Positions 11,011-48,400 of a stretch of 64,000 nucleotides of DNA are shown here, piece by piece. This DNA is from Casuarius casuarius (Eukaryota; Chordata; Aves; Casuariiformes; Casuariidae), in the NCBI GenBank assembly GCA_003342895.1, contig PTFA01000020.1:7152651-7216650 (forward strand), written 5' to 3'. The translations under genes and the position numbers were made by a program. Every line of letters starts with the position of its first letter. The first letter of the stretch is position 1. The notes beneath the pieces were generated by a model. It was not told the DNA's origin and made no database searches. It saw only the letters and a program-made list of their open reading frames with translations.

Positions 11011-14000
11011 CTGGGGGTAAAGACAGAAACAGTTTTTCTTCATTGGTAAGTATCGCCCATGCCTGAGGAAAGTCAATCTGCAACAACTGTAGCATATCGA
11101 CTACAGCAGCACTGTATAGCTGTTACAGAGCAAGGGTGATGATGAAGGGATGCGTTTATTTCTGTGCTTGCTCCCTGTGGTTTGGTACTTCTCCCCCCTT
11201 CATGGCGAAATGATGTTACCCTTACTTTGCTCAGGACCCTCTGACAACACAGAGTTTGCTGGGGACAGATCTGTTCCTTACATTGGTCCAGTTCACGTAG
11301 ACTGTGTCTGGGTTGCAACCCAATCTTAGCTCCCTTCTCTTTAACTGAGGTCAGCTAAACCAGCTATTACACTCAGCATGATTAGCATGATCAGCAAGGG
11401 TAACTGTCCCACCACAACCACATGTACTGACAGAACGGTAATGCAGCGCTTCCCGCCTGTCCTCCTGACTCACTTTCCCCCCACTGCCAGGCTGCTCTCT
11501 CCCATACACCATGGCCACCGTAACAGAATCTGTCAAAGAGAAACAACGGGACAAATTCCACTTTTCAGTCCCTAGGATGACATATAGAGAGGGTCCTATG
11601 CAGACCATCACTGAACAAATCTTCAGTTCATCATCCTCCAACCTAATCCTAATTCAAATGAAAGAAATGGGGCATGAGTATACTTTAAATAGATGGCCCT
11701 CCTAGGCCACCAGACTAGATACATTACAAGCTTTGTGCTGACAGTCTAAACACTATGTTACCATTGTGAAAACAGAGATGAACCAGACGTACTCCAGTAA
11801 AAGAAAGGGGGTCTGCCGGCTGAGTATTATATGGTAGGGTTTTACGACATTGTTAAAGTTATCATCCCTAAACATTTTAAGAGTAACAACTTAAATTCAA
11901 TAATTTTCTATATTTTAATTAGAGACCATTTCAAGAAAGGTTTGAAGGTACATTCTTAGGCTAAGGAAGGTGAAAAACAAGCATGTCTTGCAAGAGACTA
12001 GCTGGTTGAATTCCTGTCTGATTGATAGAAAGTTTTTATGCTGCAAGAGTGATGTTGCAATATTAATTGTTAAGGTGCCTAGAGCCCTTGTATATGCATC
12101 TTTTTATTATTTAAATATTGAAATAAATAAACCATCTCATTTAAGCTACCAGCAATTCAGATTTGTTAGAATTCTTTCATTAATTTTGATGGTGCTGAAC
12201 CCAGATCTGTTAAAAGACTACAGAAAAATAAGTCAGTCAGTAGTCTCTTGTAACTTCTCAAGGTAAATACCTCAGCTGTAAGAAATCAAAAGTTATCTAG
12301 ATTGCTTTCATTCACTGGGTTTTTAAATAACTAATGGCGTATTAAACTTCACTGCAGAAGTCAGCATTTGGGCTTAGCTAAATAATAATTCAAGATTACA
12401 AGAACATGCATTTTTGTACACTAAGCTTCAACCCCAGAGGAGATATACTAGAGGCTCAAAAAAAAAAAAAAAAGCACAATTTCAAATATAATTACTGACA
12501 CAATCTTAACTATAATGTTACAAACGTGATATAATACCTTGGTAAATATAAGAATTAATAAAGCCAAGGAGTTAAATGCTTTGACATATTTAAGATCAGG
12601 AGAAATGAACCATCATTATTTAATATCAACTTTAATTTTTAAATGCCAAGTTCCACTAAAAAGGGTAGGGCCTAGGGAACTTTAAATTTAAATGATTATG
12701 ATGACTAGAAACAAAGGAAACAATAAACTTCGTGGATGTTAAAATGCCTCAAAAAAGCCAACTTACGCAGCAGCTTCTTGTTTTGACAGCCCTTTGATAT
12801 TCTTCGCCAAATAATCATCTATGCCATCTTTGTCTTTGATCAAATGAACCCTAAATTTAAATGAAGAAAATTAAAAGAAACACTGTGAGGTGCTGATATA
12901 GACTTCTGCAGCATATATAATATATTAGCATTGCCAAGTAGAGCTAAACACTGAAATATTGACAAAGTAATGTATCAGACAGATTCTATAAACACATACA
13001 AATATCTTTTTAATTTTTTGGTCTGTAGCTCTTTTAAATCTTTATTTTTGCAAGAAAACAGAGTTGATACCAGCTTTTAAGGACCTGTTTATCCAAGATT
13101 TCTACCCAAACTGCAGGAAATTTTATATTAGCTAAATCAATATTAATTGATTAAGCTATCCACATTCAAACTGTTTTCTAAATCAGAGCCATTACATTTT
13201 TGCATTTTCAGTATGTATCAGACAGAGTGGTCTGATCTGTTCTGTATTTAACTCTCAAAATTAAAAAAAAAAAAAAGACTCATACCTATTTTCCCTTGTG
13301 CAATGCAGCTATTCTCATCTTTCTACAATTTGAGCAGCATATTCCAAAAGGTGGTTCACTAAGGGGATAATCCAAAGGGCACTACAATATTATTATTATT
13401 ATAATATTCCTAAAAACTTCAGGGTGCATGGATCTAATCCTAAAATTTGAACTGTACATCATTTCGGCTTTCATTTCAGCCATCATCTCTTTGCATCTCC
13501 ACTGATAATCAAGAAATGCCTTACATTTTAAAGAATAACATGCACTTACTGCATAAAGTGAATTTAAATAGATTCTGATATCCCAACAGTAGAGAACAAT
13601 ACCTTTACAAAAGTAATGTGAATTTCCTTTTTTTTTTTTTTTTTTTTTTTTTTAAGAGAGCATGAAGATCGTCTGGTTAATCACTCAAAGATGAAAAAGT
13701 TCAACAATAGTGTTGCACACAAATCTCTCTCTCCTTTCTCTGTCTGTATTACCCTGCTATCTTACAGGGTAAGTCTGTATTATCCTGCTGTCTTACAGGG
13801 ATGAGAGTAAATACTTTTCATAATGTTAGCTAATATAAGCATGGTGCTCCTTATTGCTCCGAGAATACCAAAGACACTCGATGAAGTTCATTTAATTGAA
13901 AACCAAATAGCAAAGCAACATCGAGATATTTTGACATTTCTGTATTTAAAACAATTTAACGGTGAAAACTTTCGGCACAAATAGGGCTTTTAAATTTGTT

Positions 14001-16878: not shown

Positions 16879-19489
16879 CTAAAGGAAACAAACAAACAAA
16901 ACCCACATTATTTGAAACCCTGTCTTCACAGTGATCCAGTTTCTTATCCTTCTTCTGCTGATTCTCAGTAAACTCTTTCATTTCCATTGCATCATGTGTA
17001 AAACTGAGCTCCAGTTCCACACAAATCTTTTCAGGCCTCAGCATTACTTCACTAGGACATAATGCGTAGGAACGGTTACGATATTCCTTTCAATGGCTTT
17101 CTCTACTTCACTGGGATGCTCTTGATTTGCAGAGGTGTAACTGTTTCAAGAGAGTTGCATGTGATTCCCTATGCTTCCCCAAGCTATTTAGGTCTCAAGT
17201 ATGAATAATATTTTATTAAATTAATACATACAGTGGAGAAATGATTGATCATGTGGTGTGTGGTACAACAACAGGCATTATATTAACATTCAAAATAATA
17301 AATAATTGTAATAGTAACAACCATTTGAATAAAAATCATAACTAGCACTATACTTACAACACAGGATTTTAGTTAGAACAAAAGCAGAAAGCCCCACAGT
17401 TATGTAGAATAGTCTAGCTTGTCATTTTGAAATACATAAATGCTAATAGGACTTTTTTGTCATATAGAGCTACTGTGTTTTTTCCCCAAGTATTCAGTCT
17501 ACACTTCCTACCATTAGAGTTTCAGCTGCCAGTTCCTTCATTTTGCATGTCTGTGATCTGAGGACGTTAGCAGCAGGAGCACCCTTACTTTTAAATTTGG
17601 TTTAATGTAGGTATTGCATGCCCTGCTGGTAGGCCTCAAGGCACAAACTTTTAATAGGGATGGGAAAACAGAATAAAAAGGGGGAGGGGGAAGTTAACTA
17701 TTTGTTACATTTATGAAAGGAAATTTATTTTGCAGAAATAAATGATTGATACCAATCAATTTGATACTGAACTACATTAAAAGGCAAGCATAGTATTTTA
17801 TAAATTAGTCTTTCTAGAAAGAAAAGCCATCTCATTGTTGAAATATTTCACTACAGTTATTGCAGAGTAATTTTTTTTATTCTATTACTTAGAATAGAAT
17901 AGCAACAGACAACTACTGGTTGAAAAGATAACATTATATGAAATTTACTTTTTGAGTCATTCCTTTAAAATTTAGTACTAATGATAACATTTGTTACAGA
18001 ATGAAAAATATTACCTATAAACAAACTAATTTACAATTGGAGTTAAGATTTTATGCAAGTGTGTAATGGAAAAAAATAATTAGAATAAAAAAGTATGGGT
18101 AATTAATCACTATCAAAGATTATACATCTTACAAAGAATGGCTGGTTTGTATCCAGAAGCAATATAGAAAAAGAAATCTCTTTTTAGGAAGATGCTATTC
18201 AGTGAGAAATAGTAATAAAAGTTTGGAACAACAGTATCAAAGATCAGACAAGATGCAAAACCTTCTACAAGTCTCTTATTTTTAAGGCACAGAGTGACCA
18301 AAAGCAAGGAGATCATGTTGTAACAGCAGGTGTTGAGCCTGGCAGGCAGGACAGCTGACCGTCTGCAGCAGTGCGGTAGAGAAGGTGTGTGCAGGCACTG
18401 AAAGGAGGCCTGGAAAGGCCTGGTAAAGGCACTCTAACCATCAGGAGCTATTGACAGCTCAGTGTACTTTGTAGCATGCCCCAAGTCTCAGGCTCCTGGC
18501 TGCTCCCATAATGGACCAGGCTGGAGCATACAGTAGCTCTTCTCTGGCCCACACACTCTGGGTTCCCACCCCATAAAAATCAAGCATGTCATGAGACAGA
18601 TCGGTGTGCACGCAGGTCTCATGCCAGCATGAAGCACATATGCAGAAGTTCTCCTGACCAATGACTTACAAAGATTAAAACTATTGCCCCGACTTCTATT
18701 TCATAGTCAGGGTTTGCTTCAATTGAATATCTACTTCATTTTAATTTCAGAGGTAGGAGGTTGTTTCTGCATTGAAATGGCTGGTGGTTTTTTCTTACTT
18801 CCAAAAGATAATCTACATGTAAACTACAACCACAGAAACACAGAAGATATCAGCGATGCATCCTTCAGAAACGTGCTATTACATTCTCACAAATTTCTCT
18901 GCTGATGATTTAAAGACTGGTAAATCTTACTACTTTTTTAAGGTCCAAGCCGCATCATGTATACGTACAGCAAGTCCAACGCTCACAGAATTCAGTAAAA
19001 GACCAGACAGTGCAGTTTGTTTCTAAAGAAGCGCTATCCCCAGTTCCTCCAGAAAACAGTGGGAATCTTCCCGCAGGCTGGAATCCCTCCAAAGTCCACA
19101 GAAGCAAACAGGAAAATGCCAACTGACTGCAACGGCCTTTCCTGGCGTGTTTTGGAAATTCCATTCTTTGCAGCCCAAGTCTTCCCATGCATTTTCTGAG
19201 GCAAGTGTAAATCTGACTTGAAGCTGTGAATTTCCCAGGAAGGAAAAGAGCCTAGGAATCAGACATGGCTATGCCCAGCTATCTTTGTGGATGTCAGAGC
19301 ACGACTTACAACCAAGCCTTCATTATTCTCAAAGCACTGACATGATGGGAGTGAAAACTCAACACATTTTAAAAATCCATAAAGTCAGGAAGTGATGCAA
19401 TTAATTCCAAATAACCTGGATGACATCACGGCCCAAACCAGCATTATTTTTCCTCGTGCTCAACCCATCTGTTGTGAATCTCTGCCAGC

Positions 19490-20560
19490 CTTACGGCTGT
19501 CCACCTCCGGCTACAAGAGGCAAACAGCCCTCAAGCGGGGCCTTACAACCTAAGGGAGAAACATATTTTTAGCCACCCACCCAAGCTCCGTACCCTGAAC
19601 CCTCGACTCCGGTACAGCGAGGCAGCCTCACCTGCGAAAGGCCGCCCAACCTGACCGACCGCTGAGGGGAAGGCGCCTCTCCCCCAGGCCGGGGCGGGGC
19701 TAGAGAGCCGCCGCCGCCACCCGCGGGCGCCCAACGGCCGCTTAACGGCCGCCTCGCTCCCCGGGCGCCGCGCGGGCGGGGGAGGGGTCCCCGCGCCGGC
19801 CTCGTGGGCCGCCTCGCGCGGCGGAACGGCCCGTTTTCCCCATTTACGCCTTAAAAACTGGCAGCGTTGTCCCCCGCCCCTCCCCCCGACGGCTCCCCCT
19901 TTGCCTCAGCCCCTCACCGTCCCGCAGGGCGCCGCGGCCGGCGGCGGCCCCGCGGGGCCCGGCCATGCTCCGCCGCCGCCGCCTGCCGCCTCGGCGGGAC
20001 GCCCGCGGCCTCGCCATGGCAACGGGGGCGGGCGGCGCCGGGGCCGCCCCGCCGCGCCCCCGCCGCCGCCTTCGCCCAGGCCGGCGTCGCCAGGCGCCGC
20101 CGCCCCCGGAGCCTGCGGCCAGCCGAGGTGCGGGCGCTGGGGAGCTGCTGGCGGAGAGGCGCTCAGACCAAAGCGGGACGGAGCTGGCGGGCGGGCGCGG
20201 TGCGAAGGCGCCCGCAAAAATAAGAGGGGCGCGGGCGCTGGGCGGAGAGGGCAGGCGGGAGCAGCCCGAGCGGGGCCGCGGCGGCGGTCTGGGGACACGT
20301 CCCTACCTCAGGCTTGGCCAAGCAGCCGGTGGCCGCGGGGGGAGCGAGAGGCTCCGCGGTTTGTTTGTGGCAGAGGCCCGCGGGCCGGGCGAGCCGCGAG
20401 GTCGGGTTGAGACCATGGAAAACGCGGAAGCAGCGAGAAATCAGCACGGCTCGAGGTTTCCAGCATTGGCGTGTCCTCGGTGCCCAAACCGGGGGGGACA
20501 TTTCCGAAGACCTCGCTGGCTGGATGGAAGCGGGCGCCGTGACTGATACTCCTCCATCCC
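19490..20560. promoter_or_regulatory. large CpG island, likely bidirectional promoter
   Basis: More than 1 kb is extremely GC- and CpG-rich, with repeated CCGCC, GGCGG and GGGGCGGGG (Sp1-like) words, in an AT-rich landscape. A minus-strand donor at 19632 and a plus-strand coding exon at 20855 flank it, so it sits where two head-to-head genes would both start. There is no TATA box, as usual for such promoters. Long Arg/Pro/Ala-rich frames across it on both strands are composition artefacts. The plus-strand first exon, probably untranslated, should end within it; candidate donors are visible but I cannot choose among them. Confidence 0.75.
19632..19734 (-). CDS. candidate first exon of the minus-strand gene, with alternative upstream start
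   Basis: Inside the CpG island a near-perfect donor (CAG|GTGAGG) on the minus strand ends an exon at 19632. An ATG at 19734 opens 34 codons (MGARGWRRRLSSPAPAWG...) that join in phase to exon 2, adding Val-Lys at the junction. This leader has several Arg, many Ser/Ala/Gly and no Asp or Glu, the composition of a mitochondrial targeting presequence. The same composition is also expected from GC-rich 5' UTR, so whether it is translated is uncertain. The transcript start should lie somewhat further right in the island. Confidence 0.45.
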
Positions 20561-20854
20561 GTCTGTAAGGGAAATCAGATACGCTCACAAAAAACCGTTC
20601 AACTACCCATTGTAGAAAGACGTTTGTTAGGAAATCAATATACTTAAGCTAACTGAAAGGTGTATTTTTAAGACACAAGCTTTTGATTGCCTTCTTGGAG
20701 CTCAAGTGGGATTGTCTCTAAAAGCCAGATAATTTCCGAAGTAGGCAAGCAAGGAATCAGTGGCACTGTCATACTGATACTAGTAAGGGTGCTTTGTGGG
20801 CCGCCTCTTGGGTTGTAGATGCACGCTTACGGAGAACAGGCTTTTTTCTTTCAG

Positions 20855-20928
20855 GACCTCCCAGGCATGCTTCAGGTCTTTCGAGCAATGGAAGACAGGA
20901 AGCGGAAAATCCTGGAGTTAATCTCTAG
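20855..20928 (+). CDS. first coding exon of the plus-strand gene
   Basis: A strong acceptor (cttttttctttcag) and a consensus donor (AG|GTAAGT) bound 74 bases just outside the CpG island. Only one frame is open; it contains ATG at 20867 and a second ATG at 20888 in better context (gcaATGg). The translation from the second start is MEDRKRKILELIS. The other two frames stop before the donor, so coding must begin in this exon or enter in phase 0. The exon leaves in phase 2. Confidence 0.75.
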
Positions 20929-32900: not shown

Positions 32901-35900
32901 ATGCAAATTGTATTTTTCTGTACATATCAAGCATTTCTTTGCTTTTTTTTCAATATTACTACAGAATTTCTGTAGCAATTATTTGACACACTATAACCAA
33001 CAATAGCAATTCTGTAATTTGGGGTAATTACTGTAGAATATTGTTATATTTTATAAGTGTGACACTTCACATCCTATTTCACTCAGTAAAACTCAGTTTT
33101 TATGTTTAAAAATTAATGTGGTAAAAATTCAAGTTCACAGTTACAATTATGCAGATACAGAAGTAAATGTGAAAACCTAGGCTTTCATGCTACAAATTTA
33201 GGTATATAACCTGTATACAGTTGCAGTTCAGCATGAACTGTCATAAAAAAGGGTGACAAACCCTCAATTTTTTTGGAGATGCATCTTATTACTAAAGTAG
33301 GCAGTGATAGCTAATTCTGAGAAATAGAAATGTACAGAGATAAGAATACATGGATCTGAACTGCTATATGCAAAACATCCAGTAGAGTATTACAGAAATG
33401 GTCTCATTCTTTGATAAACATCTGTGTTACAGCATGTAATTAGTGGACATCAGCCTAATTACTTTTGGCTTGCTCACAAAACACACTAGCATGCATAGCT
33501 TTATATGCTTCCACTGTTATTTTTATTTGCTATTACAACAGTTATTACAGTATTAGTTGTGTTGGAAGGGGATAAACTACTTCATCTGGGGATAAATTTT
33601 TCAAATTAGGAAACTAGGATTAAAGGTAGGATTAAAATACTGACCCCACTACATGTTCTTCCACCCTAAATGGTTCAAATTCATATCTCAAGTGAGAAAT
33701 ACATATTCTTGTTATGAGTTGGACTTAATAAAGAAATATTAAAGCAGTGGAATGCTCAGAAGAACATATATTCTCTAAAGATTACAGCTAAGTCTTACCT
33801 GATTGTTTGCATCTTCAGAGTAAGTCAGGTTGTAAAAACCACAGCTGTGATTCACTTTTGAGTGCATGTGATGGGATTTAAGTTATCACACTGTCGTAGC
33901 TAAGTTTATGGACCTTAAGTTAGTCCAAGGTAGTGTCCTAGGATGTCTTCACATCTAAGACCTTTGTATGCTCATGAGAGAATTCTTGAACACACGTTGC
34001 TGCTTGCTTTTCCTTCAATTTTTTGTGCTTTAAAATACTCTCTATTTTCCCTGCACATATATCCATGGTACTTCAATCCTTATTTTCTTTTCAAGCATTA
34101 GCATGATGGGGGGTATAAAGAGCTGAGGTCAGGTGTTATTTTGCGTATCCTTTCTTGATTCCAGTCTTGTTCTTTGATTCAGCCATTCCCATTGCTTTAT
34201 CCAGTTACAGCTTTTGAACTTCTGGTTGCCATATAGAAAACTGGGTATCTTGCCAAGTTTTTTTCTATGCAGAGTAAATGTGCCAGTTCTGGGTTATGAA
34301 ACAGGATCTACAGTCAGTCTTTATGCAGTATTTAAGCATGTCTTTCTGGAAAGATTATTGTGATGTTAATTTTCGCAGGCTTGCAATGTTAGGCCACTGA
34401 AGAGCAGTCAACCATGACTAGTAAATTAAAACCTGTAGACAAATCAGATCTGTTATTTCATATTTTTCAAAATGATGACAACTAAATGATGTGTGACTAA
34501 CATATCTATCTCCCCCCTCCCCCCCCCAAACCTTTCTCGAATCCTGTCAGTGACATACAACTTCGCAATTTTTATGGTTTCATTTCTGTGAACTTTCACG
34601 GGATTCTACTATTTACAAAGTGGCAGATATCTCTGGAAGGTTAGGGTTGATGTAATATGTAACAGTAAGAGAAAAGATCTCCAAACATGCAACTTTTCCA
34701 GTATGTTTGCCAGAAATTTGCAGATACAGCTGGTAGAAAACTTGAAACGTTTTCGATTAAACATATTGTTTGACAAAGACAGGTGTGTATAATATTTCAA
34801 AAATGATTCATCATTATGGGCCAAAATATCATTTTAAATTGTCCCAGTGTAATGTACAATTCCTTTCAGGAATTCCTTTCAGGAATTGTACATTAAATAA
34901 ACTTATTACTGCAACATTGGTAAAAGGAAGCAAAATGTGGCCATGTAATAGAATGTCAAAATTCTGTGTGCGTGTATTTTCTAATGACATCACTGGTAAT
35001 AGTAATGCGGTCATGCAAACCTCTCAATTTGTTTTACTTTTTATAGTTATATATTATTCATGTTGCATTAGTATATGCAGTGTTTATCTATAATTGTAAC
35101 AAGCACTTAATTAATTACACTATAACCTCTTGAATCTATAGGCCAACTGTTGCATCTTTAGTTAATATTTTAAAGTCTCCTCTTCTACCATTTTTCCCTG
35201 TGTCTTTGATGTTTTGTTTCTTACCCTTCTTGTTTGGGTTCTCTGCAGAATAGTCTCAGAATAATCCTGCAGTTTTCTTTTATGACTGAAACTTTGCATT
35301 TTAACAGTTGTCTGGAGATAGCTTCCTCCTTGTGAAATATCTGTTTTAATAACGAGAAAAGAAAAATGCCATAAATCTGCACTAACCACATAAAGCTGAA
35401 GTCTCTGAGAGACTGATTAACATTGAGACTCTACACAGGTTTTTCAATAATTAGAGGATGTGCTTTCATGGAGCCATGACTGCTCTGGCCTTGATGCCGT
35501 TTCCCAGGGCAGACAGCAATTATTACAGCCCACAGTACATTTCCTACATTCTCTGCCTCCAGCCACTGAAGATCTTTTAGGAGTAAAGGTCTCTTAATTT
35601 TGCACACTCCTGTCATCAGCCTGGATTAGCAACATATTTTGATTATTTTCTTCAGCTGGTATAGGGATAATTGACAGCTGCTTTTCAGCTGCAATATCTT
35701 CTTTCCACCTGAGGTTGAAAAGATCGTGATCATCGCTTTGATTATATTAATGTGGTAGACCACTGTTTTGGCCTTTTCAGCAGGGCAGCTAGAACCAAAC
35801 TATTGCCTCCGTCTGTGAGCTCAAGCGAGTAACCCCCACTCAGCACTTGTAAGCTTTGTGCTGTAGTAAGTTTATATTTATTTACTGTTCTCAGATTTCT

Positions 35901-38900: not shown

Positions 38901-41900
38901 TATTTCTCTTTCAATAGTATGTCACCATCTACCCGTCAGTGAATTCCTATATGATTTTTTATACAAATTCCATTGTAAAAAGTTACTTCTATGTAGCATT
39001 GTGTTAGGTTCTTTTCTAAGGTGCAGATAGAAAATCTTTTGCATTTCCTTTGTCTAGAAAGAATGTCAGTTATCATAGGAGAGACAGATACTAGGTATTC
39101 ATCTGACATTCATTTCTGTAATGACAAGCAGTATGCTTTTGTGTGTATATATTCCAGATTCCAGTGGAGTTTTCTTTATTTCCTTTAAATTAAAGATAGG
39201 TTTTAATATAGCACATAAGTAATGTGCAGGTACATGGGGCTAGATTCTCAGCAAGCATAAAATATTACTGTTAGCTATGCCATTTTTTGCCAGTTGACAA
39301 CATCGCCTATGACCTCTTTCTATTTGTTTGAATTTCTATCATACAATAAAATGAAATTAATTAGATTTTCAGATTTAGTCTCAAATAAAGTCAGAAAAAC
39401 AAATGTTTCAGAGTTTATGACTGTTAAAGAACATTCTTACAAGATACAATGCTTTTAGTTTCAGAATGGTTCACACTGCATCCCCTTGCAGTTGTTCTGT
39501 AATTATGGAAGTCCTACTTAATAATACACTTCTTAAATAACGAGTGAGTGTTCTAGATGGATTAGTCCGTGTGTGTGTGTATGTATGTACGTACGTGTGT
39601 AAATATATATATAAAATAAAGGCATTTTTACATGCACATAATGAGTCTGACAGCTCATCACTATACTGTGTTACTGTGTTCCAGATTTTAACAGAATTTT
39701 AAGAGGGAATAAACATTTTTATATGGTTCACAACAACTAATACATTAGCTTAGTATTCAACTGGAGAACTATATTTTGCTTTGAAAAGGGGTAGAGAATT
39801 TATTTTAACTGCTTCAGAGTACAATCCAGCAGTAAGCGGAAGTGTGAGAAAGAAACACCTAAATGGGAAAAATGTGTCACAGTTCTGCACTATGAGATGT
39901 CTTCTGCCCTTTTACTGGTCAGAGACAGGTTACACAAACAAAACATATCTGTTCCAGCCTGATTTGGCAGCTGTTATGTTAAAGTCTTATGAGGAGAAGT
40001 AAGCAGTATTACGTAGATGGTGCGGAAGATGCTTTAGTCAAAAATGACAATATTATATTGTGGTATTTTTAGTATAAAAATGATTATTAACAGAGCATTT
40101 GACCACACTCACAACTCCTGCTTTTGTTTCAGGGTAGTGGGATTCACAGTAGCAAAGACAGTACAGGTATTAAATCTAATTGCGAAGGAGCCAGTTTTCA
40201 GACTGGAATACTGAATAAGGTCTCATGAAAGAGTAGTTCCCCTCTCTGACATGGTCAGACCAGGGGCGGTGCTGGCCATATAAAACCAGAGTGCAGCCTT
40301 TGCAAGGACCCTGGGGAAAGGATCGCGTGGGTTCTAGCGAGGGCTGCACCCTCCTTTCCTGGCTGTTGTTTCCAGGGCTAGCTGGGTACTGCTAGCCAGG
40401 GATGCTGGCAGACGCTACGCTTGTGTCTTCATTTTGCTGGGTAGACAGCAGCTCTGAAGTTTGAATGTTACGGGATTCCAGGAAGTTTATTTTTTTAAGG
40501 CAAAACAGGTAATGATAGAGTTTGATGTTAAAATTGATGAAACAGACTATCTAAATAGACTCTTTCAGAAATAAGGGCAGGAAAGAAAACATTAATACAC
40601 CAGGGTAAAGCAGCACTCAAGACAGATTGATCAGAGGGATCAGGAAAAGATAGATATAGTTAGAGATGAAGACTGAAGAAATTCTCAAGCTGTTTAGTAT
40701 TATTCTGGAGAAGCACGGCTGTCGTTGACAAGAGTGTTCTGAACACTTACAGAAAAAGGGGTGATCAAGGTCACATTTGAGACACTAGAAAAACATCATA
40801 GTGATAGCTGAGTTCTTGTCAACAGAACCAGAAAAGCAGATAAAAAGCCAAAAAAAGGAGAAAGGGGGTGGGGGGAGACACTATATCACAGAAACAGCCT
40901 GGTTCAGACTTACCTTTTTCAAGTATGACATACATTTTGAATTTACCCCACAATATACACAAAGTATTTCAAAATTATCAATAAAACTTAATGGAAAAGT
41001 GTGTTAAATTCCTCCTGCACCAACACCTACAACCACTCCCTCAAAAATTTCACATCTAACAGGGTAGTTTGCACAGATAGGTTTTCTGCACAACTTCCAC
41101 ACTGTGTTTGCTCAGTTTACCAGTCAAAACAGGGTTTTGATCATTTCTGCACTGTAGATCCTGCGTAACAGATGCAAAACTCTGTTCTTTTGGCTTCAGA
41201 CATCATTTTCAACAATAGAAAACAAAATTTGGATCCAAGAATGCAGTTTGTTAGTGATGCTGCCAAAAGCACAAAGAAGACAGTCAGCCTCTTGAAAGCA
41301 AGCAACTCCCAGGGCACTGCTAGTCAACGCTTCTCATAACTTTCTGTTTTGTGGCTTCTCAGTCACCTCGGACTGTCTCTCTGTTACACACTGACACTGC
41401 TGCAGCAAAAGAGCTACTGCTGGTCTGTGTCACGCATGTGGGGACCTTTGATAGCTCCATGGAAGTAGCGAGCGGTGGCCTCTGCTTTACTTGTTTTGTG
41501 CTTTGGGCTTTATGGGCAAAGTTACCCCTCACAATTACAACCAGCACTTTTGTTCCTGCTCTCAGCAGAGATCACTCTTTATTTTAGACTCACGTAGTCT
41601 CTGGAACATAGACATCTGGAGTGCTTTTCTGAGCTGTCTAAAAATGTCTGGGCATGCTGCCCACGATTCGATGCGTGAAGGGTTTTCGTACCTAGTAATG
41701 CCAACTTGTATTTTTTAAGTATAAGCAGTTCATTTTATACATGCCTGTCAATAATTTCTAGCAGTCTTTTAACAAAATAACAGATTATGAAGAAACAAGT
41801 TACAATTTAGTACAACCTCTAAACTGCCTTCTCTAAAATCCTTATTGATAGGCTAGTATAAACATACTCTAAGATGGTCAAGAGCAACAGAACGTAAAGG

Positions 41901-42487: not shown

Positions 42488-45400
42488 ATGTATATATATA
42501 TGTATACACAATCATAGCTTTATTTGTTTTCTTTACTGCTTAGATTTATGATACTGTGTTTTTGAAAGAGAGGGACTTTTCCCTGAAGGAATGCTCCAAC
42601 AGACGGAGGAGATAATATTTTTACTGATTTCATGGAGGTTCAGTATTTATTTCTGTTATTTGTGACATGAATTTCATGACACATGTGTGTGTATCGGTTG
42701 GGTACTCAACCCTTTCTTTTGCTTAAGAATTTCATAGTTTTAAGGGAAACAGTTATTGGTGAGATCATTATCATAGAAGAAAAGGAGATTTTCCTTCATA
42801 GCTATAGTCATTCACACAAGTAGCTACGGCCACCTGACCACACACAGACATTTTCTAATTCATTTGAAATTATTCACACTAAATTTCTTGATAATGTTTT
42901 GTCAATAGTTGCTGTGTAATGATTTTCTTTAAAGTTTTTAAATGTAAGGACTCTTACCTCTAACTGGCCATCAAGATCACACATCTTTTTGTTCCCTGAG
43001 AGGATCGGTGTAGTCTTTTGAACTGGATTGCTAATGTGAATATTTGTATTTTAGAGTTTCAGACCATTTTAGTATTTATTATTTATGTAAATGCTCCTAC
43101 CATTTTTTTCTATTTTAGAATATTCATAGAAGATTAATACAAATACATGTGAATAGAGTCAAAGTATTGTTTTTAAATTTAATCCGTATTTGTGGATTTA
43201 TCTTTGATTCTGTTCTCAGCTCTAAGTTAAATTAGATTGTTTTCAAAGATATTTAGAGAATTTTTCTTCTTGCCTTAGACCCTCATTTGATTTTGGTATC
43301 AGTAACATTCTGACCTTTCCGTGTTAAAATAATATCTGAAGAAAAATCCTTTTACTAGATTACAGAAATTTGTCTTGCTCAAGAAATCCACACAGAGTTT
43401 CTGCACTGTGTCACACTTTGTGTTAGTTCCCTGACCAGCACATTTATGAAACTTTGCAGTTTTATATTCCTAAGAGCAGGAAGGATGGGACAAACATACT
43501 GGGCATTCATCTTTCTTTTTAATCAGGAGACTAGCACTATGTACGTAGCCATCCTGTGCTCTGTGGCCTTCTCCCTGGAAGTCCATCCGTTGGTCTGTGC
43601 ATAATCATCTAGGTGACTGAGGGTATGGAACAGCTTCTGTAAGAGGAGGGTCACATAAATTACAACTATTCAGCCTGGGAAAGCGTTGACTAAAAGAAGA
43701 AAGGCTGAAGGTCTGTCTAATCATTACTAGTATGAAGAAGGTGGTCAAGGAATGACTGTTCATTGTCTCTTCCAGAACAAAAGTTGAGAAAGAATTTTTT
43801 GCAAACACTCGCTGTAATCCCCTTCATATTTCATAGTGTTTGGCCCCAGACAAACCACTTGCCTTCATGGTGTTTTTTGTAACGCTCTTATTCAATACTG
43901 TTTTTCAAATGGTAAAATTTTCCTTAAAGCCTCAGCTGATATAATCATGTGATAATAGCTCAGATTTCTTTAGAAAGGGTGGGGGGAAAGCAAAAATTTT
44001 AAAAAAATTTTTGATACTCTGATAGTGGCTAGTTTAGTTTACAAATTTTACTGTGACTTAAAAAGATAAAAAACCCAACATCATTAATTTTTTAAATTCT
44101 CATAAATTTGGGGATATTTTTGTAAGATTCCTTTTTGGCTTTACTGCAATTTATTTGGAAAGGATTAAGTTGTAATTATAGACAGACAAGAAACACATTC
44201 AATCAAGATGACCTCTGACGGACTCCATTGCACTCATCACGGTATGTTGTTACACAGTAGCACAGCATCACCTGAATTTATTTTTCGCATGACTTGTTTG
44301 AGCGATAAGAACATAAAGTGTGTATAAAATCAGTACCCCATCCTTCTTAAGGGAATCATATGTACATAAATATTTTGTGCAATTTTCCTGTGCTATTTCT
44401 GGAGCACCCCAACTTTATATGAGCTTAATTGCGTTGTTTTATTATTTGCATTCTATTTTGTTATTTAGTAAGCTCCTAGTTAGCATGAGAAATAATGAGA
44501 GGGCTTTCAGAATGCACATTAATGCAGGAGCTTTTCCTCTCTGGCTGACATTTCCTATAGACCTACTGTACAAGTGTCATTTGGGAAAATAATATTTGTC
44601 ACAAATGTATTAGCATGAGGAGTAAAGTAAAAAAAAATTTAAACAAAACCAAATTATTATGTATTTTTCTCTTTTTTAATGGAAGAGATATATATTTCAC
44701 ACCATTGCTAATCTTGCACAAATCATGGTACAGACCACTTCATTACTGACCGCTTTGGCAGTATGCGGCCAGAGCTTTGACAGAACAGGCAGTTCGAAGG
44801 GTCATCTAATACTATGCAATTCTGTTTGAGCCTGGAGATTTGAAAGGAGGACCAGCCATGAAATTTAAGGTCTTTTCCCATGCTCCATCATCTCACTGAG
44901 AGTTTAAATAAAACATTGGGGGAGCAAAACAAGTTGAGAGTTCTTTGGAGATGGTAAGGAACAAACCAAGTAAACAACGAATCACTGCTTTGGCACCGGG
45001 GGGCACATGCCTGCCAGTCTTCCTGAGCGCTGCGAAACGACTGATAGACTGTACAGGTATCCTTATGGCAAATACTCTTAAGAATTAACTAACTAAAATG
45101 TTTATTTTTATACCTGGCAAATCATGTAACTGTATATTGTCACAACAGTGTTATACACCAAATCTACCAGCTGCCGTCTCTTCAAATTCCCACCTCAGTC
45201 CTCAGCTTTCCCTCTACCATCAGTGGAAAAACATTGCCTAGGAATCAAGGCACTATTGCCAGTCCAGCTTTTTCTACCGAGGCTATCAGAGGTAAGAACT
45301 TTTCCTAAGTCAGATATGTTTTCTGGTGAATTTGACAGAATTTGTCAGCCTAGCACAAAATAAAAATGTTGCTGCATCCCAAGTCATAATGGAATCCAGA

Positions 45401-48400
45401 TTTTACAATGATTAAGGTTTCCACAGCCAAAAGAGAAATGCCACAAATTCATTTCTTTCTAGGGCAAATTAGGCTACAAAATGAACACTAATTATTTTAC
45501 TTTGAACAGAGATGATCCATTTGCACACAAGTAATTCTGCTTTCAAAATATCCCATTCGGACACTACTGACTTAGCATTGTTGCCAGGAAAATACCTTTC
45601 TTCTTTCTCATCTCTTTCTCTTGCTTTTAGTACTTTCCCTTTTCCTTCCTATGCTCTGCTTGTGATTCGAGAAGTACCTCAGCTCCAAGGACCTCGCCTT
45701 CTGTTGGATGTTTCCAAACCTTGCCTGGCCTCAGCCAAAGGGGTCGGCACACTGTGAAGCAGCTCTGCCACTCAGAGTGGGCTCATTAGCGGGAGGCTGG
45801 GCACCACTGGACATTGTTTCGTTGCTAACCCGGAGACGAAACAATGTCCACCGGAGCCCAGGCTTCCACTGATCCCTTTCCATCCAAACAGAGTGCTTAA
45901 CCTATACGGTCACCTGAATGACGAGGCCCTTTATGTTTAGCACCTTCTCTGGATAGTTTAATATGAAGTAATTCCATCAATGTTTCATACTCTTGTTTCA
46001 TTAATTTTTTGAAGGAAGAATGTATTATTAAATGTTCAGTCCCTTCCCTCTTATCAGTTCAATTAAGGTACAGGAGGTACATTCACAAAGATATCCTCCA
46101 GCAAAACTAGAATTAACATCTGATATTTTGAGGATTAAAAAGTCTAGCAAAACCATAAAAATAAAAGGTTTTCAAGCTCCTCTTAGGTATAACATACAGA
46201 GTGTGCAATGAAGTGCAAGTAGTATTCTTCATATGAAAAAGAATTGTTTCTGGTTGTTGTAGTTTTTTGTTTTTCTTTTTATGAAAGGAATTTCGTAAAT
46301 GATGGGGAGGCATGTGAAGAACTCAGAAATGTAAACAAAAAGTGATTGAAAAAAAGAAAAAGACTGACATAATTAAAAGATACAAACTTCAGAATTAAGG
46401 ATGCAGAGAAACTTTAATTCTGTCTTTTTCTTTCCCCCGTCAACTTCTGTCTACATCACTGAGCACACGTTATGCTATTTTGATTATCCATTAGGAATCT
46501 TACATCCTGCATGCTATCACATTGTATATTGAGAGTCATCTATTAATTACAATTAAGCTGTACAATTAAGTATAGTTTCCCTGATGAACTTTTATCGATT
46601 AAGTCCTTGAGTTTTCTTATGGTAGTTTTGAAATGTCTATAGATTTCCAAATATATTTGACTACACACAGATAATATTTGAATGGTTTCATTTCATGTGT
46701 ATAAATAATACTTGTGTGGATGATAATCTGTGAAGCTTAAATCCAGGTGGTCAGTGATGTTTGGCACTACTTATGGTTACCCGATTAGCTATAACAACAG
46801 AAGCAGAAGGCCTGGAAAAATTCTTCTGACTTCAAATTTCTCTTAGAGGTAATAGTTGAGGTTTAAAAAGTAGATAACAGAGTTGAATAACAGGAAAAAA
46901 CAGTAGATAACTGGGCTGAATAATTATGGAAATTTCAAAATCTTTGCCTTGGTGAGCTACGGACTAATCAAATGTACAGTTCTTGAAAAAAAAAAAAGAA
47001 GGGAAAAGGATTATAGGATATAATGATTTGATGCTGAGATTTAGGGTTTTTTTCCTCATCACAGTGATTTCCAAGTATTTGTTTATAGGTCCCTTTTAAC
47101 TGCAAAGAATATAGGCAGAGGAGTGTCCAAAACATTTAATTCTCTTTGGGTACTTGCTTTACTTGGGAATTTGGTACAGAGCCCTGTTCCCAGGGAAGTA
47201 AAAGACCATGCAATCTAAAATCAATTCTGAGTCAGGCTAACTTTGCCTTGCTTGCATACTAACAAAACAGTACATCTTTTTGCTTTTGTTTTGGCTGGCC
47301 CAAACTTCCCCGTTAGCTTTACTCATGCAAAACCACTAATCACAGTGAGTTGTGTAAGACAGAACTTAACCCTTTATGTGTAATCGAGATAGGCAGTTTT
47401 CTTACCCACATAACGACTCAGGTTCTTCAAAATCTTTTCTTGTGCAAGGGTGAGATTTTAGTAAAGCATCTAGCAGATTTTTTCAGAACATTTCAGATTG
47501 TCAAAAGTATGGCAAAAAAATTAAAACATCTTTTTTTTGATCAGAAATTTCTTACTGTGCAGTAAGAAGAGGGTTTTCTGGCCAGTAGAATAATTGGTTT
47601 AACATTTGTGACAGAAATGTGACGTAAAATACCATCTTTAAATAGATAACTTTCTTGACTAGGAGAAAAACCCACACCGGGTCCGTGTGACAGGGTCTTC
47701 TTTTTCTAGGATATTCATCCTCCTCTGCTTCCCATGACTTCTTTTGTCTCTGTTCTCAAAACATAAGCCCTTCTCTCCACTTCCTGGCAGCTTGCTTTGT
47801 CTCCTTCACATTTCCCCCTATTTAATTACATTAAAATTCTAGTTTTGCTGCCTAATTATGTTGAATTTCAGTCATTTTTAATGCTGCTTATTACCACTAT
47901 TTATTTACTTAAGATGTCCTATGACTGACTTCATCCTGTGACTGCACCAACACTGTTTCAAACCTACACCATTGTCTGTTTATTTCTGTTTTTTTAATTG
48001 CGAGACAGTTTATTCTGTCCACCATAATTCAACTAGCTTTATAGTTACATGATACAATCAGAATGAACAGCCCAGCTCAGCAAGAGAAGGCAATTTTAAA
48101 ACAGTGGTAATTCTGTAGAATGCTCTTCTCCTGGATGTGGCAGTTCCACAATTGCCAGGAACATGGTTCTCCCCGTGGTGGGCAGTCGAGCGGCAGAACC
48201 GGGGCCGTCAGCAAGGAGAAGTGCTCCCAGAGCCCTCTGACAGCAGCGAGGTTCCTGCAGAAGCCAGCTCCGCTGCTCAGTCTTACTGCACATAATGCAG
48301 TGGTGCCCACGGCTCGAGCACCTCACACGTGCTGTGTGTGGACTGAGTAATTCTGTCCCAAGCAACCCTCACATCAGCCTCCTGCGCAAAGGTGACTTAT

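What the first reader, a model, noticed from the sequence alone, without database searches (positions are those of the whole stretch)
45788..45870. Intronic hairpin shaped like a microRNA precursor
Two 35-base arms pair at 29 of 35 positions plus a wobble, with the inner 14 bp perfect and a 13-base loop. Such a long, near-perfect inverted repeat is very unlikely by chance. Length and mismatch pattern fit a pre-microRNA hosted in the plus-strand gene's intron. I do not recognise the arms as any known microRNA, so it may be undescribed or lineage-specific.
Basis: partly seen in the sequence, partly recalled or inferred. Interest (0 to 1): 0.75.

Follow-up and report, generated by a model that had tools for sequence, protein, structure and literature searches.

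The report
Single-copy hairpin, possible microRNA precursor
A long, strongly folding inverted repeat, found once in what is probably a bird genome, sits in apparently intergenic DNA; its shape suits a microRNA precursor, but nothing available shows that it is transcribed, processed or conserved, so it is best read as an inverted duplication that might have become a young microRNA.

Summary
Shuffles give about 3-5e-5 such repeats per 64 kb. It is the best-folding 110-base segment outside CpG islands in 224 kb. A genome search (1.19 Gb) finds one copy, while a CR1-like control gave 1800 candidates, so a multi-copy foldback transposon is unlikely. The stem and loop sizes suit Drosha. Against a microRNA: no Rfam match, no plus-strand Microprocessor motif in register, and no strand bias in the mismatches. 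The 'plus-strand host gene' is not supported: the only gene identified is TTC29, on the minus strand, its likely promoter island about 25 kb away. Most likely this is a single-copy inverted duplication, perhaps made by replication template switching, whose transcript, if any, would be an unproven proto-microRNA. Small-RNA reads and related genomes would decide; neither was available.

The parts
45785..45822 (+). 5' arm of the inverted repeat (38 nt)
   Evidence: 31 of 38 Watson-Crick pairs with 45836-45873
45823..45835 (+). 13-nt terminal loop (a short helix may form inside it)
45836..45873 (+). 3' arm of the inverted repeat (38 nt)
45779..45876 (+). full hairpin as folded, including three outer G-C pairs
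   Evidence: MFE -57.9 kcal/mol for 98 nt
45801..45822 (+). inferred 5p product if Drosha cut 22 nt below the apical junction (prediction only)
   Evidence: offset 0; no read evidence
45838..45859 (+). inferred 3p product, same register (prediction only)
   Evidence: offset 0; no read evidence
45773..45779 (+). left copy of a 7-nt direct repeat flanking the hairpin; probably chance
   Evidence: read; 7 nt is the longest shared word of the two 40-nt flanks, reached in 4.9% of 3000 shuffles and 10.9% of 3000 real-sequence controls
45889..45895 (+). right copy of the 7-nt direct repeat
   Evidence: as above
12766..12852 (-). TTC29 5' coding exon (nearest identified gene, opposite strand)
   Evidence: tblastn E 2.2e-5 with a recalled human TTC29 stretch; AG and GT splice signals seen
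19251..20750 (.). CpG island, likely TTC29 promoter, possibly bidirectional (inference)
20855..20928 (+). plus-strand exon-like segment with good splice sites just outside the island; no homology found
   Evidence: PDB search empty

Best explanation
A single-copy inverted duplication of about 38-42 bp, most simply made in one step by template switching during DNA replication and since diverged by point changes. It lies in DNA that looks intergenic, about 25 kb upstream of TTC29's likely promoter. If either strand is transcribed, the RNA folds into one long hairpin with a stem and loop of the size Drosha prefers, so it could act as a proto-microRNA. Shown: the repeat, its fold, its non-chance nature and its single-copy status in this assembly at the search's sensitivity. 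Inferred: template-switch origin, transcription, processing and any function. My default is no established function.
For: Ungapped, contiguous inverted repeat with a short spacer, far above shuffles. One copy: 1 first-look candidate for 103 bases and for 361 bases, against 1800 candidates (40 scored) for a CR1-like control from the same contig. A covariance model built from this one hairpin finds only itself, on its two strands, in 224 kb at E up to 5. Mismatches do not favour one RNA strand: 2 G:U on +, 2 on -, 3 neither, as neutral divergence would leave. Other inverted repeats occur in the same 224 kb, for instance at 34864 and at window-relative 125104, as expected of a recurring mutational process. 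PMC8794818 (abstract, passages and section 5 read; [quoted passage not shown]
Against: Template switching cannot be shown without an ancestor that lacks the repeat. All 7 non-Watson-Crick positions of the 38 lie away from the loop, leaving a 15-bp perfect inner stem (P 0.019 for a loop-side run that long, 0.15 for such a run anywhere), and each arm keeps a CpG there although the window is CpG-depleted (O/E 0.30; hairpin 0.71). That hints at constraint or re-templating of the inner stem rather than plain decay. It is weak: five other places outside the islands also have 5 or more CpG in 89 nt. The genome search may miss very diverged copies.
Confidence: 0.6

Rival explanations
1. A genuine, undescribed, lineage-specific microRNA: Drosha and Dicer cut the hairpin and a 22-nt strand enters Argonaute. 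The host transcript is unknown and could be on either strand.
For: Stem of about 35 bp and 13-nt loop match published optima (PMC10954719 and PMC7174388, passages). Best MFE outside CpG islands in 224 kb, second after GC correction. MFEI 1.04. Single copy. Perfect inner stem with retained CpGs. On the minus strand a CNNC lies at +17 or +18 in two of 7 cut registers, and a UG at -14 in one other.
Against: No Rfam match at gathering in the window and none on the hairpin at E up to 5. No plus-strand UG, UGU/GUG or CNNC at 16-18 in 7 of 7 registers. No host gene shown. Balanced G:U and A-C mismatches. No read or conservation data. Six 13-15-nt arm strings occur in no paper of the held library, which says little.
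Confidence: 0.22
2. Relic of a palindromic (MITE or foldback) transposable element.
For: Length and layout resemble a short palindromic element (MADE1, recalled). A 7-nt direct repeat flanks it.
Against: One copy in 1.19 Gb although the same search gave 1800 candidates for a CR1-like repeat. The flanking repeat is matched by 10.9% of real-sequence controls. Very diverged copies could be missed; the tool says counts are lower bounds, and the mismatch-tolerant arm search did not complete.
Confidence: 0.1
3. A DNA-level palindrome, such as a regulatory site or a cruciform, kept for protein binding rather than as RNA.
For: Both strands fold almost equally well. The surrounding 45660-45940 block is GC-rich (0.54) with CpG O/E 0.50 in AT-rich DNA and is single-copy.
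Against: No chromatin or conservation data; the arms are longer than usual binding palindromes (general knowledge).
Confidence: 0.08

Closest known systems
Young microRNA loci attributed to template switching (MIR633 in monkeys and apes, PMC8794818)
   Same: Long hairpin made of one inverted repeat, with mismatches that can arise later
   Different: MIR633 is annotated and its origin was reconstructed on a phylogeny; here there are no reads and no outgroup
Canonical metazoan pri-microRNA
   Same: About 35-bp stem, loop over 10 nt, symmetric internal mismatches
   Different: No motif in register on the plus strand, no shown transcript, no Rfam family, no reads
Palindromic MITE such as MADE1 (source of mir-548; recalled)
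   Same: Similar length, near-palindromic
   Different: Single copy here; MITEs are multi-copy

Membership tests
microRNA gene | Single imperfect hairpin with about 35-bp stem and terminal loop over 10 nt | tested here: met
microRNA gene | Two arm products of 20-26 nt with precise 5' ends and 2-nt 3' overhangs in small-RNA reads | not testable with these tools
   no read data available
microRNA gene | Microprocessor motifs (basal UG, apical UGU/GUG, CNNC at 16-18 nt); helpful, not obligatory | tested here: inconclusive
   plus strand none in 7 of 7 registers (one CNNC at +20); minus strand CNNC at +17 or +18 in 2 of 7 and UG at -14 in 1 of 7. mGHG was displayed but not scored
microRNA gene | Match to a described microRNA family | tested here: not met
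   Rfam 15: none at gathering in the window; for 45500-46200 at E up to 5 only one weak lncRNA hit, outside the hairpin. miRBase and MirGeneDB were not available
microRNA gene | Conservation of arms and pairing in relatives | not testable with these tools
   no related genome is held; exact-pattern scans of the prokaryote and viral collections were empty, as expected
   a plus exon-like segment at 20855-20928 without homology; no Pfam family on + from 20560 to 64000; identified gene TTC29 is on -
foldback transposon or MITE | Many related copies in the genome | tested here: not met
   one place; control, 1800 candidates. Very diverged copies not excluded
foldback transposon or MITE | Target-site duplication | tested here: inconclusive
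   7-nt direct repeat; 4.9% in shuffles, 10.9% in real-sequence controls
template-switch inverted repeat | Contiguous ungapped inverted repeat with short spacer, single copy | tested here: met
template-switch inverted repeat | Ancestral sequence without the second arm | not testable with these tools
   no outgroup held

The most novel reading that the evidence does not exclude
An undescribed lineage-specific microRNA caught early in life: a template-switch hairpin whose inner, CpG-bearing 15-bp stem has stayed perfect while the outer stem diverged, implying selection on, or repeated re-templating of, the inner stem.
Probability: 0.2. Interest if true: 0.45.

Novelty: new member of a known kind. 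Interest (0 to 1): 0.27.

Why it matters
If processed, it would be a clean single-copy case for watching a microRNA arise from an inverted duplication, and for asking whether a hairpin needs Microprocessor motifs or only the right length. If not processed, it shows that microRNA-shaped hairpins arise without becoming genes, which matters for computational microRNA annotation.

Tried and rejected
Led nowhere: Rfam with relaxed E-values (one weak lncRNA hit beside the hairpin; one; four hits elsewhere in the window, three of microRNA type, the best mir-297 on a GT repeat at E 0.0014, all far below gathering); Rfam at gathering for 14 of the 16 flanking stretches (none; L017 and L018 not given); six short arm strings in the paper library (0 papers); the hairpin pattern in genome contigs and viral contigs (none); Pfam scans of read-through frames (0 families), whose long stop-laden frames may lower sensitivity. 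The plus strand of 1-20559 and most of the minus strand were not scanned with Pfam. Paper searches gave nothing on this locus (listings only).

Considered and rejected: a mirtron (a weak GT at 45777 and a CAG ending at 45891 flank the hairpin by eye, but no exons were found next to it; not scored); SOX-like sites in the arms (CATTGTT and AACAATG, motif recalled, not tested). Searches proposed many exon-like segments; of these only the TTC29 exon left of the window was confirmed by homology, and the TTC29 exon at 12766-12852 came.

Full report
Observation. Arms 45788-45822 and 45836-45870 have 29 of 35 Watson-Crick pairs plus one G:U around a 13-nt loop; the perfect inner run is 15 bp. The repeat finder extends the arms to 38 nt and folding to 45779-45876. 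MFE of 103 nt is -59.1 kcal/mol on plus (z -8.4) and -55.8 on minus (z -6.9); 0 of 200 shuffles were as stable on either strand.

Chance. With an ungapped inverted-repeat score the hairpin gets 20.5, and the next in the window 15.0 and 13.0. The best of 234 whole-window and 255 block-wise dinucleotide shuffles is 16.5; the extrapolated expectation is 3.3e-5 and 4.9e-5 per 64 kb. Real sequence is a fairer control. In the surrounding 224 kb, with loops up to 60, one AT-rich repeat scores 23.0, this one 20.5 and another 18.5. By MFE of 110-nt segments (29636 folded on both strands; those with N dropped) it is fourth, after three segments inside CpG islands, and second after GC correction, behind a TG-rich segment in L016.

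Copy number. The window is part of a 1.194-Gb assembly. The 103-base hairpin has one first-look candidate and matches only itself and its own opposite arm; the 361-base surroundings behave the same. The same search with a CR1-like fragment from the same contig gave 1800 candidates, of which 40 were scored. So it is single-copy at that sensitivity. A covariance model built from this one sequence (entered twice) finds only itself, on both strands, in 224 kb. This argues against a foldback transposon. A 7-nt direct repeat flanks it, but 10.9% of 3000 real-sequence controls share words as long.

Setting. The one gene I could identify is TTC29 on the minus strand. An exon left of the window matches TTC29 chains in the PDB (E 7.9e-31); two further exons lie farther left, and an upstream coding exon lies at 12766-12852 with splice signals. 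The CpG island at 19251-20750 is its likely promoter (inference). The hairpin is about 25 kb beyond it. On the plus strand a segment at 20855-20928 has good splice sites but no PDB match; other exon-like candidates, such as 48244-48391 and 45206-45291, have no support beyond their score. Three-frame translations of 20560-64000 gave no Pfam hit, and no EDNRA exon was seen in the 224 kb, which reaches 120 kb beyond the window (best E 0.18). The locus therefore looks intergenic; an unannotated non-coding host transcript is not excluded.

Clade. A genome of 1.19 Gb, few repeats within the window, CpG depletion (O/E 0.30) and an abundant CR1-like repeat (weak endonuclease Pfam hit below its cut-off, E 3.9e-4; the name CR1 is recalled) suggest a bird. 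No call names the species.

MicroRNA tests. Geometry: met. [quoted passage not shown] Motifs: on the plus strand none of 7 cut registers has UG at -14, UGU or GUG at the apical site, or CNNC at 16-18 (one has CNNC at +20); on the minus strand CNNC falls at +17 and +18 in two registers, and UG at -14 in one other. PMC10954719 notes that most natural pri-miRNAs carry only a subset of motifs, so absence is not decisive. Families: no Rfam match on the hairpin. Strand: the 7 non-Watson-Crick positions of 38 are 2 G:U on plus, 2 that would be G:U on minus, and 3 neither, so selection for one RNA strand leaves no visible mark. For the reading: all seven lie away from the loop (P 0.019 for a loop-side run of 15, 0.15 for such a run anywhere), and each arm keeps a CpG in the perfect part although CpG is depleted around it. 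This is suggestive only: five other places outside the islands are as CpG-rich over 89 nt, and the boundary was chosen after seeing the data.

Mechanism. An ungapped single-copy inverted repeat with a short spacer is what replication template switching can produce. PMC8794818 (abstract, passages and section 5 read) reports patterns consistent with this for human microRNA loci such as MIR633, with mismatches arising after a phase of perfect pairing. I commit to such an inverted duplication as the origin (0.6), with the RNA hairpin as a possible by-product that may or may not be used. A functioning microRNA gets 0.22; the two are not exclusive in origin. [quoted passage not shown]

Limits. No small-RNA reads, no other vertebrate genomes and no miRBase were available. 

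Noticed in passing
window 40245-40365 (+): A second stable hairpin (MFE -59.5 for 121 nt, z -3.8, 1 of 200 shuffles as good) with a 20-bp, one-mismatch duplex, about 5.4 kb from the first; also microRNA-like in size. Copy-number search did not complete.
   Followed up: partly
window 34850-34895: A 46-bp near-perfect palindrome built around a 13-base tandem unit.
   Followed up: partly
L009 about 1054-1164 (window-relative 125104): Another inverted repeat, score 18.5 with a 4-nt loop; its fold is only modestly better than shuffles (z -2.7).
   Followed up: partly
window 12766-12852 (-), and 2.6-2.9 kb left of the window (L015): TTC29 coding exons on the minus strand; the CpG island at 19251-20750 is its likely promoter, and a smaller island at 251-1000 lies between these exons.
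   Followed up: yes
window 20855-20928 (+): Exon-like segment with good splice sites and an open frame but no PDB match; possibly a transcript divergent from TTC29.
   Followed up: partly
window 45660-45940: GC-rich (0.54), CpG-enriched (O/E 0.50) single-copy block around the hairpin in AT-rich DNA; cause unknown.
   Followed up: partly
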